A stretch of DNA of 45,206 nucleotides from a virus, in IMG/VR virus record IMGVR_UViG_3300037963_005050, positions 1-45,206 of that record; one strand, given 5' to 3'. The notes below the pieces were generated by a model. It saw only the letters and a list, made by a program, of their open reading frames with translations, was not told the origin of the DNA and ran no database searches. This document shows positions 8,001 through 26,400 of this stretch, piece by piece (position 1 is the first letter of the stretch; the number at the start of each line of letters is the position of its first letter). Made by a program: the position numbers and the translations under genes.

Positions 8001-11000
8001 TTGTAAATGCAGGAAGAGGTTCTTTTAATTATCCTCCAATCACAGTTGATGTAGAGGGTGCAGCATCATCTTTCGATAAGACATTCGTTGAGGATTTCCA
8101 AGAATTATATGTTATTGAGTCTCCAATCACTGAAAATATTATTACTCCAGTCTCCGTTCTTGCTTGGACTGATACCGAGGCAGAGATTCACAATCCATAT
8201 TATGTTTTAGTTAGTGAAAATGCAAATTGGCTTATCAGTGATGATCCATTCATTGGTAACATTCTTCTTTATGAAGCAAAGTTACAACCCGTATTCAGAG
8301 GTTCTATTCAATCTATTGATCGTGTTTCTGGTGGTGTTGGATATGGAGCATCCACTATTATCGATTTTAACAGACAACCAGAAATCACATTTAAATCTGG
8401 AGAAGGTGCGGTCTTAACTCCGATTATAAACAATGGTAAAATTACAGAGGTAGTTGTAAATTCTCCTGGAAACGGATACAACTCTCCACCAGATTTAGTC
8501 GTTAGAAGTTTAGACAATAAAGGGGATTATGCTATTCTTGTCCCGATCATTGAGAATGGTCAAATCAAAAGTGTAACGATTCAAAAGACTGGATTAGGAT
8601 ACACTCCTGGAAAGACTTCTATTGATGTAATTGCCTCAGGTCGTGGTTCAAGAGTTCAAACTAACGTAAGAGCATGGAATGTTAACTTATTTGAGAAAAC
8701 CTTTGAAAACATTGGTGACGATGATTGTGTTTTAACTGAAAATATCGCAAACACTTCTTTGCAGTTCGCATCATTCTATGCTCCTAGACCTCTCAGAGCT
8801 GGTTCAAATTCTGTTAATGGATTCGAAGAAGACAATATCAAGTATGGTCTTTTTGACTTACAATTGACCACAGGTGGTGAAGAGACCTCTAGTGGATTCC
8901 ACTCTCCAATTTTGGGATGGGCTTATGATGGAAATCCCATTTATGGTCCATATGCATATGACAAGATCAATGGATCAGGTAATATCCGCAGAATGAAGAG
9001 TGGTTACAAGTTAAAGAATACTCCAGTAAACAGACCATCATACACAGCATTCCAAAATGGATTCTTTGTTGATGATTATGAATTTGTTGGGGATGGTGAC
9101 CTTGACGAGTACAATGGTAGATTCTGTGTTACTCCAGATTATCCTAATGGAGTATATGCATATTTCTGTACAATAAGTGATAATATAGAATCAACTGGAC
9201 CTTTCAATAATTACAGACTTCCACAGTTCCCATATGTAATTGGTGACAAATTTAGGTCTTTGCCTGTTGATTTTAATTTTAAGGCAACTTCTAATCAAAC
9301 CGATTACAATATCACCAAAAATAATTGGTTTAGAAACACCAGATTCTATTTTACAAATGGTGGTAATAATGGATACGACTATATCTTTAATTCTGATTTA
9401 ATTAGAAATTCATCCATTGATATTACATCAACCACATTGGGTGGTATTGATATTTTAAATATCAAAGATCCTGGTCATAACTATAAAGTAAATGATAAGA
9501 TTATCTTTGATTCATCTCAAACCAGTGGAAGAGGTGTAAATTGGAGAGTCTCTGAAATCAAGGGTAAAGACATTGAACAGGTAAGTCTTGCAACCACTGT
9601 TTTTGATGCATCAGAAATTATTGGAGATAATTCAGCAAATAGTTTCTTAGGAATAACTTCATCACCTCACGGTTTCTTAACAAACGATATTGTCTTCGTT
9701 GATGGTTTGTCTCAATTCTATAGGGGTCTTGGTGGGGCATATAGAGTTGGTGTGACAAGTGAAAGATGGTATACGTCTGTAGGTATTGCAACGGGAACGA
9801 CGACTGGTATCGTCACTTATGTCTATCTTAACGGTATCATTGACCCCTCCGTCGTTAGACCTAATGATATTTTAAGAATTGATAGTGAGCAATTTAAGGT
9901 ATTAAATCTGGATGCAGTATCTGGAAGAATTAGAGTCCTTAGAGGTCACAATAACACACTTCAGGTCACTCATTCAGCGGATACTCTTGTTAGAGATGAT
10001 CCCAGAAAGGTAAGGTTTACTACCACTGGTATTAGTACCAATAAACCTGTCACCACAAACAGAACTCATTACTTCATGCCAAATGAGTCTGTAGGTCTTG
10101 GAACTGCAACTACAGGAACAGCAACAACAATTACATTCTCAAATCCTGGTGTGGGTGTCACCCAGATAAGACTTCAACAACAACAGTTCTTCTATCCAGA
10201 TCATGGTTTTGAACTTAACACTCCACTCAAGTATTATACAAATGGTGGTACATCTTTAGCAGTTTGGAGTGGTATTCAAAGTTCCACAATATTCAATCTC
10301 GAAGAAACAAGAGATCTGTTTGCAGTTCCACTTACTAGAGATATAATTGGTCTGGCATCAGATCGTGTAGCATTGAGTACAGTTACTAGTCAATACGTTG
10401 GTGTTGATTCTTCTAAGGGTGGATTGTTATACTTTACTAATTCTACAGGTCTTGGAGTTACTCATAGTCTTGTGACTGTTCTTCCCCAAGTTCTTACTGG
10501 AAGAATCTCTCAAAATGTAGTCACAGTTTCGACAGGTGAAACTCATGGAATGAAGAGAGGGGATAGGATTTCGGTTGACGTAAATCCAACCACAACCTCA
10601 ACAATTAAAGTATTTTATGATGATTATAATAGAAGAATAGTATTTGATAAAGATACTATTGAACCATCAGGTATTAACACAAGCGGTAATATGATTACCG
10701 TTCCAAGTAATAAGTACAGAACTGGTGATAAAATCATCTATACTTCTGGTGACCCTTCGGAGGGTTTAATAGCGTCAGGAATGTATTATGTCTTCGTGTA
10801 CAAACGGAATATTATCAAGCTTGTCATGGATAAGTTTGAATTGTTTACGGAAAATCCATCCTTTGTAAATGTTGGCTCTGCGACTACAGGAACTATTGCT
10901 CGAATTAATCCAAGAATTGAAGTTCAAAAAAATCAGAACTTAAAGTTTGACTTATCCGACCCCTCATTATCATTTGTTGATAAGGGAATCACTTATTCTG

Positions 11001-17167: not shown

Positions 17168-18817
17168 ATGGCATACCAAGGTATTAACACTGGCACTACG
17201 CCAAATGATGGAACAGGTGATACCCTAGTAGACGGTGGAGTTAAAATTAATAGTAACTTCACCGAGTTATATAGCCTTATTGGTGATGGTTCCACCTTGG
17301 CCGTTGGTATTGTAACGGTCATCACTGCAGGAACAAACGTATCTATTAATACATCAACTGGTAATGTAACGGTATCAGCACCAACCCCAGTATCCATTGC
17401 AACTACTGACGTTGACATTTCAAGAAATCTTAAAGCCGCTGGGATTACAACATTAGGTGTGACAACTGTCACATCATTATTAACTTCAGGTATCACAACT
17501 TTGGCAAGTCAAGGTGGTGTTACAACGACTGGTGGTGATCTTTATGTTGGTGGTGACCTGTATGTTTTAGATGATGTTGTTTATGATGAAGTAACTGGAA
17601 GAAATATCAATATTACAGGTGTTGGTACAATTGGTCAATTGTTCGTTGGTTCTGGTCATTCTGCTGGAACTCTTGATGTTGCTGGTGTATCGACTCTAAC
17701 TGGTAATGTGAGTTTGGGTGGTTCTATCTTTTTAGGTGAAGATAAGGCAGTAGACTTTAAGCAAGGTAAGTTTAGAATTTACCACGATGACAGTACTGGA
17801 AATAATATTGATGTATCAAGTGGAGCATTTAATATTAATGCTGATACACAGATCTTCAATAGTGGAGCTGGAACAACTCAAGTCATAGCAACGAACGCTG
17901 ACGGAAATTTTGGTACAGAATTATATTACAGTAATACAAAAAGATTTGAGACAAAACACGGTGGGGTTGGTGTATTGGGTTACTTCAGAGTAACTGGTAT
18001 CTCTACTCTCGGAATCGTAACTGGTGCAACTTATTACGGTGATGGATCAAACCTGACGGGAATTGCTGTAACTGCAAATGTCAGTACAAATACATTAGTG
18101 GTTTCTGGTGTATCCACTCTAGGAGTTGTCACTGGAGCAACATATTATGGTAGTGGTGCAAACCTAACACTAACAGGTGCTGATGGTTCTGGACTGACTG
18201 GTGTAGTTACCACTCTTACTGGAGCTGATGGTTCTGGACTGACTGGAGTAGTCACAACTCTAACTGGTGCTGACGGATCTGGTCTGACTGGTATCACCAC
18301 ATTGATTTCGGCTGGGAGTAATATCACAGTAACAACAAATGCAGGTATCACTACCATATCATCAACAGGTGGTGGTGTTGGTGTCGGAACTACAACTGTC
18401 AGTACAAATTCGCTGGTCGTCTCTGGTGTTTCTACTTTAGGTGTAGTCACTGGTGCAACATACTTCGGAGATGCGTCGGATATCACACATTCAAGTTGGA
18501 CTCTTGGTGCAGATGGATCCACACATTATCAATTTACTGGTCCAGGTGGACTGAGTGCAACTGCCGATCCTGTTATCTACTTAGCAAGAGGTCAGAATTA
18601 CGAATTTGTAAATAATATGGGTGCTCATCCATTCGAAATTCGCTCCTCGAATGGTGGATCTGCATTCTCGACGGGTGTAACAAATAATGCGGTGTCTAAC
18701 GGAACTCTGAGATTTGAAGTTCCATTCAGTGCACCAAACTCATTGTACTATCAATGTACATCTCATGCCGGCATGGGTGGAACGATTGTTATCTATCCAA
18801 ACCTGTTCACGGTCTAA
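17168..18817 (+). CDS. tail fibre-like protein with C-terminal cupredoxin-like domain
   Basis: The 549-residue protein has three parts. The N-terminus, MAYQGINTGTTPNDGTGDTL and VKINSNFTELYSLIG, is a common cyanophage fibre head. The middle (about 130-440) is a Thr/Gly/Val-rich beta fibre with repeats STLGVVTGATYYG and three 15-aa LTGADGSGLTG units. The last 110 residues resemble a cupredoxin: YEFVNNMGAHPFEIR supplies H487, and LYYQCTSHAGMGGTIVI supplies C530, H533 and M536. The Cys-x2-His-x2-Met spacing is that of amicyanin-type blue copper proteins. The fibre role follows from composition and from its place between the gp7-position giant and gp8. Copper binding is inferred from residues. In other phages such domains may be non-metal folds, but here all four ligands are present. 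Confidence 0.85.
   Translation: MAYQGINTGTTPNDGTGDTLVDGGVKINSNFTELYSLIGDGSTLAVGIVTVITAGTNVSINTSTGNVTVSAPTPVSIATTDVDISRNLKAAGITTLGVTTVTSLLTSGITTLASQGGVTTTGGDLYVGGDLYVLDDVVYDEVTGRNINITGVGTIGQLFVGSGHSAGTLDVAGVSTLTGNVSLGGSIFLGEDKAVDFKQGKFRIYHDDSTGNNIDVSSGAFNINADTQIFNSGAGTTQVIATNADGNFGTELYYSNTKRFETKHGGVGVLGYFRVTGISTLGIVTGATYYGDGSNLTGIAVTANVSTNTLVVSGVSTLGVVTGATYYGSGANLTLTGADGSGLTGVVTTLTGADGSGLTGVVTTLTGADGSGLTGITTLISAGSNITVTTNAGITTISSTGGGVGVGTTTVSTNSLVVSGVSTLGVVTGATYFGDASDITHSSWTLGADGSTHYQFTGPGGLSATADPVIYLARGQNYEFVNNMGAHPFEIRSSNGGSAFSTGVTNNAVSNGTLRFEVPFSAPNSLYYQCTSHAGMGGTIVIYPNLFTV
18170..18304 (+). repeat. three tandem 45-bp units in the fibre gene
   Basis: Three consecutive 45-bp units (18170-18214, 18215-18259, 18260-18304) each encode a 15-residue LTGADGSGLTG-type beta repeat. 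The copies differ mainly at third codon positions, so the protein sequence is held while the DNA has drifted. Copy number could change by slippage or recombination and would alter shaft length. Confidence 0.9.
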
Positions 18818-18852: not shown

Positions 18853-20412
18853 ATGGCTGCGATAATTACTGATCAACTGCGTATTTTGAATGCGAAGAAT
18901 TTTGTCGATTCTGTACAGGATTCTTCCAACTCTTACTATGCGTGGATTGGTCTTCCAGATGCTCCTGAGTTTCAGAGTGATTGGAATTCTTCTCCACCTG
19001 CCCCTAAAGATAGTTTGGATGACTCCAACTATTATTGGGACACCATGATTGCTCTTAAGAAGATCAATAGTGGTGATGTAAGTCAAGTTGTAAGAAAGAT
19101 TTCTTGGCAGTCAGGTACCACATATGATATGTGGAGAAATGATATTGATAGAGATAATCCTTCTCAACCATCTGGAGCATTCGATATCTATGACTCCAAC
19201 TTCTACGTAATGAATAGTGAGTACAAGGTTTATATTTGTCTCTTTAATAACGCAAATCCAGAGAATAGCTTTAGAGGTGGTCCTTCTCTCGATGAACCTA
19301 ACTTCACTGACTTAGAACCAAGAGAGGCTGGAAGTAGTGGTGATGGTTATATTTGGAAATATCTTTACACTATCAAACCAAATCAAATTATCAAGTTTGA
19401 TTCTACAAATTATATAGCGGTTCCAACAGATTGGGATACCAATACATCCTATCAATCAGTTAGAGAAAATGCTGGAAACAGTGGTCAATTAAAGATTGTC
19501 ACGATTAGAAATCGTGGTGTTGGTATCGGAACAGCAAACGTAACTTATACAAGAGTTCCTATTCTTGGTGACGGTAGAGGTGCTGAAGCTACAGTTGTTA
19601 TCAATAATGACTCAAAAGTTGAATCAATTACGGTGTCTAAGGGTGGTGAAGGATATTCTTTCGGTACACTCGATCTTGAAAGAGGTGGTGTTCCAAATGG
19701 AACGATTGCACCAGTGTTTGATGTAATTATTCCACCAAACGGTGGTCATGGTGCCGACATATATCGTGAATTAGGTGCCTACAATGTCCTCTCTTATGCT
19801 AGATTTGAAAATGACACTCAAAATCCTGACTTTATCACTGGTAACCAGTTTGCACAAGTAGGTATCGTTAAAAATCCAAAGAACTACAATTCAACAACTA
19901 ATCTGACAATCGACAAGGCAAGTGCAGTATATGCACTTAAATTGGTTGGAACTGGATATAGTGAGGCAAAATTCACAGCTGACTCATTTATTACACAAAC
20001 TGTGGGTCTTGGTTCAACGGCTGTTGGTAGAGTTGTTTCATATGATCAACAAACTGGTATTTTAAAATATTGGCAGGACAGAAGAACTGCAGGTTTTAAT
20101 ACTGACGGAACAAAGAATGTAAACCCAACTTATGGATTTGAACAGCTGAGATTCACTGCTGACCCTGTATCTGGTGGTAGTGTAGATATTATTCCCACAT
20201 CTGGTAATACATTAACAATTGATGCAAATTTTACAGGTGTATCAACCACAATAAATAGTCGTACCTACTACCTGGGTCAAGACTTCACTAAAGGAGTCTC
20301 TAATCCAGAGTCTGAAAAGTACTCTGGTGACATCATTTACGTTGATAATAGACCCTCAGTTACTAGATCAGCTTCACAGAAAGAAGACGTTAAAGTTATC
20401 TTGCAATTCTAA
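18853..20412 (+). CDS. 8: baseplate wedge subunit gp8
   Basis: This 519-residue protein is the cyanophage form of gp8; T4 gp8 has 334. The opening, MAAIITDQLRILNAKNFVDS, and the C-terminus, SGDIIYVDNRPSVTRSASQ followed by EDVKVILQF, are hallmarks I recall from cyanomyovirus gp8 proteins. The centre carries two GxGY repeats (VSKGGEGYSFG around residues 258-270; LKLVGTGYSEAKF around 360), absent from T4 gp8 as I remember it, which helps explain the extra length. gp8 dimers bridge wedge proteins near gp7 and gp10. The gene lies between a fibre gene and the DUF4815 giant, whose ATG is only 5 nt past the gp8 stop, so they share a transcript. Confidence 0.88.
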   Translation: MAAIITDQLRILNAKNFVDSVQDSSNSYYAWIGLPDAPEFQSDWNSSPPAPKDSLDDSNYYWDTMIALKKINSGDVSQVVRKISWQSGTTYDMWRNDIDRDNPSQPSGAFDIYDSNFYVMNSEYKVYICLFNNANPENSFRGGPSLDEPNFTDLEPREAGSSGDGYIWKYLYTIKPNQIIKFDSTNYIAVPTDWDTNTSYQSVRENAGNSGQLKIVTIRNRGVGIGTANVTYTRVPILGDGRGAEATVVINNDSKVESITVSKGGEGYSFGTLDLERGGVPNGTIAPVFDVIIPPNGGHGADIYRELGAYNVLSYARFENDTQNPDFITGNQFAQVGIVKNPKNYNSTTNLTIDKASAVYALKLVGTGYSEAKFTADSFITQTVGLGSTAVGRVVSYDQQTGILKYWQDRRTAGFNTDGTKNVNPTYGFEQLRFTADPVSGGSVDIIPTSGNTLTIDANFTGVSTTINSRTYYLGQDFTKGVSNPESEKYSGDIIYVDNRPSVTRSASQKEDVKVILQF

Positions 20413-23400: not shown

Positions 23401-26400
23401 ATTACTCCAAAGATCTTGGTGTGGTTGGAAATTCAAGAGTTTCAGACATCATTGATGCTAGACCAAGAGTTGTTGATTACTCAGTTAGTGAAGGGGCAAA
23501 CTCTCCATTTGAATTTAGTGGAAGATCTTTTGCCGATGGTCAAGAAGGTAGAACACATAGTTCGTCACACATCATAGCATCTGACGAGTCTATGACTCTT
23601 GATTATAATTACTTCTTGGGAAGAGTAGATAGAATTTTTATTGATACTACGGGAAGGCTTGGTGTTCTTCAAGGTGCGGCAGAAGATAATCCTAAGATGC
23701 CTGAGCCACTGAGCAATACGATGACTATTGCTACGGTCTATCTACCACCATTCCTTTATAGCACCTCTGACGCTGAAGTTAAGTTTGTTGAGCATAAGAG
23801 ATATCAGATGACTGATATCGCAAAACTTGAGCAAAGAATTAAGAATCTTGAATATTATACATCACTTAATCTTCTTGAATCACAAACTCTTAATTTGTTT
23901 GTGGAAGATTCTAACGGTTTGAATAGATTTAAGTCTGGAATATTTGTTGACAATTTCTCAAGTCTTGAACCTCAAGACACCTCTGTTGGTATTAGAAATA
24001 GTATCGATAGAAAGAAAGGTATTCTCAGACCATCTCATTATACTACTGCACTCAGTCTTCAACTTGCAACTAATGCTATCAGTGGTGTTGGAACAACATC
24101 CAATACTAATGAAGACACAGAGTTTGTGGATCCTGTGGGTGTTAATGTAAGAAGAACTGGTCGAACAGTCACTCTTGATTATGATCATGTTGAATGGTTG
24201 AATCAACCATATGGTACCAGAGTTGAGAATGTTACACCATACTTGGTACAATTCTGGCAAGGAAGTATAGAATTAACACCAGATGTTGATGTGTGGATTG
24301 ATACCACACAAATGGAAACCAATAATGTGATGATGGAAGGTTCCTTCAATGGAATTGCTCAAGCACTTGGAGCAGAAGTCACAACAAATGCTGATGGTCA
24401 GAGTGTTGGTGTTACGCCAATTATTTGGAACTCTTGGGAAACGACTGGTGTAAACTTAGATATATCCTTGTCTAACGATACATCAACATCTACATCATCT
24501 TCTCAGAACACAATATCCGCAAGTGAGAATACCAACCTTGGTGGTGGAGGTAGTGTCAATGGAACTGTAGATATTCAAACAAATACGACAACCACCACAA
24601 CAACAAATAATATCTCTGCAACATCATCAATCTCCCTTGATCAGCAGAGAACTGGTACTCAGTACACAGTGAATGAACAAATTGACACAGAATCTCTCGG
24701 TGCTTTCGTTGTCAATAATGAGATCATCAACTTCATGAGATCTCGTAACATCACTATAAGAGGAACCTCATTTAAACCATTTACTAGACTTTATAGTTTC
24801 TTTGATGGAGTCGCAATTACAAAGTTCTGCACTCCAAAGCTCATTGAAATTGAAATGGATCATGGAACTTTCACTCCAGGTGAAACAGTGGTTGGTGCCA
24901 TGGATAATGGGGGTGCAGTTTCAAATAATTCTGCTTCTGTTCCATCAATAAGATTTAGAGTTGCAAGTTCTAATCATAAGTTTGGTCCATACACTGCTCC
25001 TACAGACATATACAACGTAAATCCCTATAATAGAGACCTTCAAGTTCCGGCAACTTACTCTGAGTCCTCTTCACTTTTGAACGTTGACTTGTTCAGTCTT
25101 CAGTCCACGGATTTCCCACAATTCGATGGATACATTGGAAAAGATATGGTCTTAACTGGTCAATCAAGTGGTGCTCAGGCTAGGGTGAGAAATAGACGAC
25201 TGATTACCGATAGAGTTGGATCTTTACTCGCATCATTTAAAGTCCCCGAATCTGGAAATTCGTCCAACCCTGTATTCGAAACTGGTAGATCTACATTAAG
25301 ACTTACAAGTAGTAAATCTAATAGTATGATTGAGGGTGTGGTTACCACGGCTGGTGATGCTATCTTCTATTCACAGGGTGACCTTTCTACCACTCAAGAG
25401 ACAACATTGTCCCTTAGAAACGCAACCGTCATTCAAGAGGACTTCTCTCAGAATCAGACACTTTCTGATACAGCAACATCTAATACAATCACAGTTACAT
25501 CAACAGATACAAATACTCAAGTAACTGACGTTGACTTAGAACTTGGTGGAACTTTACCACCTCCACAAATTATTGTTCAACCACCACCAGCCCCAAGATT
25601 CACGGGTGGTGGTAACACAGGTGACCCACTTGCACAAACATTCACAGTCGATGATGAGACAGGTATCTTTGTAACGAAAGTAGATTTCTTCTTCAGAACA
25701 AAGGCTGAAAGTGCTCCAGTGATGTTCCATATTAGAGAAACTAAATTGGGACAACCAGCTCGTAAAGTTCTTCCATTCTCTGAAGTTTCACTTGATCCTG
25801 ATCAGGTCAACCTCAGTGATGATGGTACAGTTGCAACTACCTTTACTTTCCAATCACCAGTCTACCTTGAAGGAGAGACTGAATATGCGATGGTATTGAT
25901 GTCTCATGCAACAGACTATACTGTCTATATCAGTAGATTGGGTGAGGCAGACATCACAACATTAGGTGGTGGTGAATCCGATCAGGTTATTGTTTCGGAA
26001 CAACCTCTCCTTGGCTCTCTATTTAAGTCACAAAACGCATCTATCTGGACCCCAAGTCAGTACGAAGACCTTAAGTTTAAACTTTATAGAGCCAATTTCA
26101 AATCTACTGGTAGTGTTTCTTTCTTCAATCCACTTTTACCAGAATCTCTTGAAAAAGTTGATCCCAATGGTCTTTCACTTGAATCAAGACAAGTCAGAGT
26201 TGGTCTTGGAACCACTGTCAACGATGCCAGTGTACCTGAACCATTACAACTTGGTAATACAGTCAAACAGTTGAGTATTGGAGCACAAGGTACTCTTGTA
26301 GCGTTTGCTGGGTCAGCAACAGGTACCATGAATGTTACTAATGTTGGTGCTGGTTTCACTCCATCAGCTGGTGGATTTACTTATACTGGTGTTGCACTTA

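What the first reader, a model, noticed from the sequence alone, without database searches (positions are those of the whole stretch)
18484..18814. Cupredoxin-like fibre tip with a complete copper-ligand set
The last 110 residues of the fibre contain H487 in GAHPFEI and C530, H533, M536 in YYQCTSHAGMGG, giving His...Cys-x2-His-x2-Met as in amicyanin-type blue copper proteins. A phage fibre ending in an electron-transfer-type fold is unexpected. It could bind copper at the host surface, stabilise the tip, mimic plastocyanin, or be a copper-free fold that kept the residues.
Basis: partly seen in the sequence, partly recalled or inferred. Interest (0 to 1): 0.7.

Follow-up and report, generated by a model that had tools for sequence, protein, structure and literature searches.

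The report
Copper-site cupredoxin tip on phage gp9
A marine cyanophage tail protein ends in a small domain folded like a blue copper protein, with all four copper-holding residues in place; hundreds of related phages carry the same module, so these virus particles probably bind copper at their tails, which nobody seems to have tested.

Summary
Residues 444-544 of the 549-aa ORF 17168-18817 are predicted with high confidence (pLDDT 97, pTM 0.88) to be a cupredoxin. Their best structural match is the N-terminal cupredoxin domain of a copper nitrite reductase (Z 10.9), then rusticyanin. H487, C530, H533 and M536 form the classical blue-copper ligand set, and C530 is the protein's only cysteine. 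The carrier is a gp9-type baseplate/tail-fibre connector of a T4-like cyanophage, extended into a fibre.

It is not a one-off: 346 of 50,697 phage records match, in gp9, proximal tail fibres, collagen-like fibres, a podovirus fibre and a subtilase. Using a profile blind to the ligand columns, 218 of 236 distinct copies keep His/Cys/His/Met. Copies that lose Cys lose the second His every time and nearly always the first, while other conserved positions stay. That is what a metal site predicts. Nine of nine Bacteroidota surface-protein copies keep all four.

Copper binding is inferred, not shown. The domain is absent from gp9 of sister phages isolated on the same host strain. It is therefore exchangeable, more likely a metal-stabilised contact domain than an electron carrier. 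I found no paper describing it.

The parts
17168..18817 (+). 549-aa gp9-type baseplate wedge / tail fibre connector, fibre-like
   Evidence: PF07880 T4_gp9_10_N over residues 4-73; phrog_677 over residues 1-544; lies between the gp7-like 4032-aa ORF and the gp8-like ORF 18853-20412 (phrog_438)
17168..17386 (+). N-terminal gp9/10-type baseplate-attachment region
   Evidence: PF07880, 34.7 bits against a cut-off of 25
18167..18292 (+). three tandem TLTGADGSGLTG repeats (residues 334-375) in the shaft
   Evidence: found in the translation; copy number differs in relatives
18497..18799 (+). cupredoxin domain, residues 444-544
   Evidence: AlphaFold2 pLDDT 97.2, pTM 0.88; Z 10.9 to 2dv6, 9.3 to rusticyanin 2cal
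18626..18628 (+). H487, predicted first His ligand (G-A-H-P-F)
   Evidence: invariant in 30 diverse copies
18755..18757 (+). C530, predicted thiolate ligand, the only Cys of the protein
   Evidence: invariant in 30 diverse copies
18764..18766 (+). H533, predicted second His ligand
   Evidence: invariant in 30 diverse copies
18773..18775 (+). M536, predicted axial Met ligand
   Evidence: invariant in 30 diverse copies, though also kept in most ligand-lost copies

Best explanation
The C-terminal ~101 residues of this gp9-type tail protein are a genuine cupredoxin domain with an intact type-1-like copper site (His487, Cys530, His533, Met536). The domain most likely takes up one copper ion per chain once the virion leaves the reducing host cytoplasm. 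The metal clamps the loops at one end of the beta-barrel and protects the lone cysteine. The domain then acts as an exchangeable, stable contact module at the end of the gp9 fibre, touching the host envelope or the next fibre, rather than as an electron carrier. SHOWN here: the sequence, the predicted fold, ligand conservation, joint loss of ligands, and modular gain or loss. INFERRED: that a metal is bound, that it is copper, when it is loaded, and the contact/stability role. My estimates: cupredoxin fold 0.97; functional metal site 0.8; copper specifically 0.7; structural/contact role rather than redox role 0.55.
For: Fold: pLDDT 97.2, pTM 0.88; Z 10.9, 88 aligned, rmsd 1.8, to the NirK N-terminal domain 2dv6; 9.3 to rusticyanin; 108 chains at Z >= 8; top Foldseek hits are blue copper proteins. 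Sequence: Pfam Copper-bind is the main match of 21 of 30 family members, best E 6e-4; a profile search of PDB sequences returns mostly blue copper proteins, E from 0.026; profile comparison with phage plastocyanins gives probability 80.6, E 1.3e-5, with C and H aligned. Ligands: invariant in 30 diverse copies; with a ligand-blind profile 218 of 236 distinct copies keep all four, and 124 of 124 C-terminal copies do. At 60% identity (40 representatives), copies with Cys keep His1 34/35 and His2 34/35, copies without Cys keep 1/5 and 0/5, while G32, F37, Y35, G60, L83, P80 and G69 stay 5/5. Loop length changes to C-x3-H-x2-M in four copies with the ligands kept. Nine of nine Bacteroidota copies keep all four. 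One further copy has Gln for Met, a substitution known for the axial position (axial Gln from my knowledge of stellacyanins). Purifying selection: dN 0.056, dS 0.683 against RB11-B. Modularity: RB11-B has the domain, while S-B05 and RN05-S share its gp9 body but end differently, all isolated on Synechococcus MW02.
Against: No metal has been measured, and ligand-ligand distances in the model could not be computed. Sequence similarity to named copper proteins is weak: the window domain scores 15 bits for Pfam Copper-bind against a cut-off of 21.2. The residue after His1 is Pro (HPF), not the Asn common in plastocyanin and azurin. Homologous copies exist without ligands, so a copper-free version of the domain is tolerated. 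The pool behind 218/236 came partly from searches with ligand-containing peptides, so that fraction is not an unbiased prevalence. The tree has few columns, and its well supported branches force only one loss event although the best tree needs four. Nothing places the domain at the host surface.
Confidence: 0.6

Rival explanations
1. Redox role: the copper centre exchanges electrons with a host surface or periplasmic protein (mimicking plastocyanin or cytochrome c6) or senses host redox/light state to trigger adsorption or ejection.
For: Intact type-1-like ligand set; hosts are phototrophs; [quoted passage not shown]
Against: S-PM2 has no copy of the domain at the sensitivity used. The domain is absent from gp9 of sister phages on the same host. 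It also occurs in Bacteroidota surface proteins. Many of these phages already encode a separate plastocyanin-like protein (12 of 19 records over the Pfam cut-off).
Confidence: 0.13
2. Copper as bait: the tail presents copper (or the copper-loaded domain) to a host metal-uptake receptor, a copper version of the Ferrojan horse idea proposed for iron in marine phage tails.
For: Metal-bearing tail fibres have been proposed as receptor bait for iron (the term occurs in 26 held papers; content from my own knowledge). C-terminal copies always keep the ligands.
Against: No copper-uptake receptor tested; many four-ligand copies are internal rather than at protein ends (94 of 218); same family in bacterial surface proteins.
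Confidence: 0.1
3. Copper-free fold that kept the residues for packing or folding; the module is only an Ig-like adhesion domain.
For: Copies without ligands exist and persist; Met is retained even in most ligand-lost copies, suggesting that it packs in the core.
Against: Ligand columns are lost together while equally conserved non-ligand columns are not. A lone Cys is kept in an otherwise Cys-free extracellular protein. Loop length varies while ligands stay.
Confidence: 0.12
4. A metal site, but not for copper in the virion (for example zinc or nickel in seawater).
For: Cupredoxin sites can take other divalent ions in vitro (general knowledge).
Against: His2CysMet in a cupredoxin barrel is the classical type-1 copper set, and the spacing equals that of amicyanin (general knowledge applied).
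Confidence: 0.05

Closest known systems
Amicyanin / plastocyanin / pseudoazurin (type-1 blue copper proteins, Pfam PF00127 Copper-bind)
   Same: Cupredoxin fold; His...Cys-x2-His-x2-Met spacing as in amicyanin; C and H align with phage plastocyanin profiles.
   Different: Below the Pfam cut-off (15 against 21.2 bits); HPF after the first His instead of His-Asn; fused to a virion protein; no electron-transfer partner known.
N-terminal cupredoxin domain of Hyphomicrobium denitrificans nitrite reductase (2dv6, 6tfo) and rusticyanin
   Same: Best structural matches, Z 10.9 and 9.3 over 87-88 residues.
   Different: Only 17-19% identity; an enzyme domain and a soluble periplasmic carrier, not structural proteins.
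T4 gp9 (baseplate socket for long tail fibres; PF07880, phrog_677)
   Same: N-terminal 70 residues and genomic position among baseplate-wedge genes.
   Different: The window protein carries fibre-like shaft repeats and a cupredoxin C-terminus.
Ig-like domains of phage surface proteins
   Same: Exchangeable beta-sandwich module hopping between tail proteins and morphotypes.
   Different: Cupredoxin rather than Ig fold, with a conserved metal-ligand set.

Membership tests
Cupredoxin fold superfamily | Greek-key beta-barrel superposing on solved cupredoxins | tested here: met
   pLDDT 97.2; Z 10.9, 88 residues, rmsd 1.8
Type-1 blue copper proteins | His, Cys, His (and usually an axial Met) ligands in order, with C-x(2-4)-H-x(2-4)-M | tested here: met
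   H487, C530, H533, M536; conserved and lost as a set
Type-1 blue copper proteins | Binds one copper with an S-to-Cu charge-transfer band and type-1 EPR | not testable with these tools
   Needs purified protein
Pfam PF00127 Copper-bind (plastocyanin/azurin) | Score over the curated cut-off | tested here: not met
   15.0 bits against 21.2 for the window domain; best of 30 members E 6e-4
Amicyanin | C-x2-H-x2-M ligand-loop spacing | tested here: met
   CTSHAGM; 214 of 218 four-ligand copies share this spacing
Amicyanin | Soluble periplasmic electron acceptor of methylamine dehydrogenase | tested here: not met
   The domain is the C-terminus of a phage tail protein; partner protein not tested
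T4 gp9-type connector | gp9/10 N-terminal domain and position among baseplate-wedge genes | tested here: met
   PF07880 over its cut-off; gp6-like, 4032-aa, gp9, gp8-like gene order
T4 gp9-type connector | Carries the long tail fibre on its C-terminal side | not testable with these tools
   Needs a virion structure

The most novel reading that the evidence does not exclude
Marine cyanophage virions are copper metalloproteins: an unannotated cupredoxin family is a standard tail module, and a type-1 copper centre on the tail takes part in host contact (redox-sensing or copper-dependent docking), so that copper chemistry in seawater influences phage adsorption.
Probability: 0.2. Interest if true: 0.9.

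Novelty: new variant of a known kind. Interest (0 to 1): 0.63.

Why it matters
Type-1 copper sites are known from electron carriers and oxidases, not from virus particles, as far as my searches show. If the site is loaded, some of the commonest ocean viruses carry copper at their tails. That would link trace-metal chemistry to infection and give a simple spectroscopic handle on a cyanophage tail protein. Even if it is purely structural, it names a module present in several hundred phage records that are currently annotated mostly as connector, tail fibre or hypothetical protein.

Tried and rejected
Ligand-lost copy as a fold control: AlphaFold2 gave pLDDT 68 on 13 sequences, and its structural matches were unspecific (best Z 5.7). 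It can be used neither for nor against the idea that the fold survives without the metal; profile comparison does place those copies in the same family (probability 100, E 8e-41).

A scan of viral contigs with the ligand-masked alignment found no usable pattern, and the single genome-contig scan gave one locus, so cellular relatives were instead sampled in 296 Bacteroidota genomes.

Independent-pair tests of joint ligand loss had too few pairs to reach significance. Chance was rejected as an explanation.

Literature searches for cupredoxin or plastocyanin-like domains in phage structural proteins found no relevant paper; only open-access papers are held, so this does not prove absence.

Full report
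WHAT IS THERE. The ORF 17168-18817 (+) encodes 549 aa. Its first ~70 residues match PF07880 T4_gp9_10_N above the curated cut-off, and the whole protein matches phrog_677, 'baseplate wedge tail fiber protein connector'. It sits after a gp6-like ORF and a 4032-aa baseplate protein and before a gp8-like ORF. So the 'fibre' is a cyanomyovirus gp9 that has grown a fibre-like shaft with tandem TLTGADGSGLTG repeats. Its last ~100 residues (444-544, 18497-18799) are the domain in question.

THE OBSERVATION. H487, C530, H533 and M536 lie at 18626, 18755, 18764 and 18773. C530 is the only cysteine of the protein. C-x2-H-x2-M occurs once in 13,175 residues of the window's long proteins, against 0.0066 expected.

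FOLD. With 30 diverse homologues from IMG/VR (alignment A1), AlphaFold2 gives pLDDT 97.2 and pTM 0.88. Foldseek's top PDB hits are rusticyanin, NirK, laccase, plastocyanin and amicyanin. A DALI-like alignment puts the NirK N-terminal cupredoxin domain first (Z 10.9, 88 residues, rmsd 1.8), then a multicopper oxidase and rusticyanin (Z 9.3). By sequence the relationship is weak: Pfam Copper-bind is the dominant match of the family (21 of 30 members) but below its cut-off for the window domain. A profile search of PDB sequences returns mostly blue copper proteins, with E-values from 0.026. Profile comparison with plastocyanins encoded by the same phages gives 80.6% probability, E 1.3e-5.

IS IT A METAL SITE? 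In A1 all four are invariant, but that set was gathered partly with ligand-containing peptides. I therefore built a profile with the four ligand columns masked (A2). I searched 23 phage records with it and classified every domain copy in all loci held at that stage. Of 236 distinct copies, 218 have His/Cys/His/Met. The others are FAVM, FATM, FAIM, YAQM, YCQM, NGTM, QSGM, MNDA, HSNM and HCHQ. Thus copies lacking Cys always lack the second His and nearly always the first. At 60% identity, copies with Cys keep His1 in 34/35 and His2 in 34/35. Copies without Cys keep 1/5 and 0/5, while several non-ligand columns of similar conservation are intact in 5/5. Met is kept in most ligand-lost copies, so it may also serve packing. 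All 124 C-terminal copies keep the full set; every loss is in an internal copy. In four copies the loop is one residue longer, yet the ligands remain. The number of independent losses is uncertain: the best tree needs four changes, but well supported branches force only one. Joint loss with the backbone kept is what a shared metal site predicts. I infer copper from the fold and ligand set; nothing here measures it.

DISTRIBUTION. 346 of 50,697 phage records match the domain, against 486 with a relative of the neighbouring gp8-like protein. Most listed hits are annotated gp9 or connector. The domain also occurs in a putative T4-like proximal tail fibre and a collagen-like fibre of P-SSM2, near the N-terminus of a podovirus tail fibre in P-GSP1, twice in a subtilase-containing protein of P-HM1, and, by structure, in giant-virus 'beta-sandwich' proteins. 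In 7 of 296 Bacteroidota genomes it appears in proteins that include collagen-like and CHRD-domain proteins; several begin with a likely export signal. All nine such copies keep the four ligands. S-PM2, HTVC008M and P-SSP7 gave no match.

MODULARITY. RB11-B carries the domain at 91% identity. Its sisters S-B05 and RN05-S have nearly the same gp9 body but a different, shorter end, and S-B43 has its gp9 split into two ORFs. All four were isolated on Synechococcus MW02. They still carry another copy, in a 782-aa fibre protein, but there the two His and the Cys are gone. So a ligand-bearing gp9 end is not needed to infect that strain. Between window and RB11-B the domain is under purifying selection (dN 0.056, dS 0.683).

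HOW IT MOST LIKELY WORKS. A copper-clamped beta-barrel at the end of the gp9 fibre, loaded after lysis, acting as an exchangeable contact module. An electron-transfer or light-sensing role is possible but weakened: the domain is exchangeable, it is missing from S-PM2, it occurs in surface proteins of Bacteroidota, and most of these phages have a separate plastocyanin. Several marine cyanomyoviruses do adsorb in a light-dependent way (PMC2984593), so the redox idea is worth testing. The control model of a ligand-lost copy was too poor to say whether the fold survives without metal.

NOVELTY. No paper in the held library that I found links cupredoxins to phage virion proteins. Pelagimyophage fibres are described with YHYH, concanavalin, collagen and other domains, with no mention of cupredoxin or copper (PMC7029224). 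The fold is known; its use as a widespread virion module with an intact copper site appears undescribed. I file it as a new variant of a known kind.

Noticed in passing
L083:1859-7387 (Prochlorococcus phage P-HM1): An 1842-aa virion-region protein has a subtilase domain between two four-ligand cupredoxin copies, plus Ig-like matches.
   Followed up: partly
L136 (Prochlorococcus phage P-SSM2, record 25526-25831): A 566-aa collagen-like tail fibre has a four-ligand cupredoxin domain inserted between Gly-X-Y repeats.
   Followed up: partly
L404-L412 (Bacteroidota genomes): Surface-type proteins, including CHRD-domain and collagen-like ones, carry the same unannotated cupredoxin family, ligands intact in nine of nine copies.
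   Followed up: partly
L095 and L126 (782-aa fibre protein of RB11-B and S-B43): Ligand-lost paralogue (His to Phe, Cys to Ala, His to Val) in a second fibre protein shared by RB11-B, S-B05, RN05-S and S-B43.
   Followed up: yes
L086:2501-3990 (Synechococcus phage S-B43): gp9 is split into two overlapping ORFs within the TLTGADGSGMTG repeats: a frameshift, a sequencing error or a true split.
   Followed up: no
window 18167-18292: Three tandem TLTGADGSGLTG repeats in the gp9 shaft; RB11-B has more copies, suggesting variable fibre length.
   Followed up: no
window 8915-8953: The 4032-aa baseplate protein contains GWAYDGNPIYGPY, resembling a YHYH-domain motif; no domain search for it was made.
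   Followed up: no
L130 and L089 (S-ShM2 1186-aa and P-HM1 4448-aa proteins): A longer cupredoxin variant with an inserted segment before the Cys strand, Cys/His/Met kept and a His at or near the first ligand position, in other large structural proteins.
   Followed up: partly
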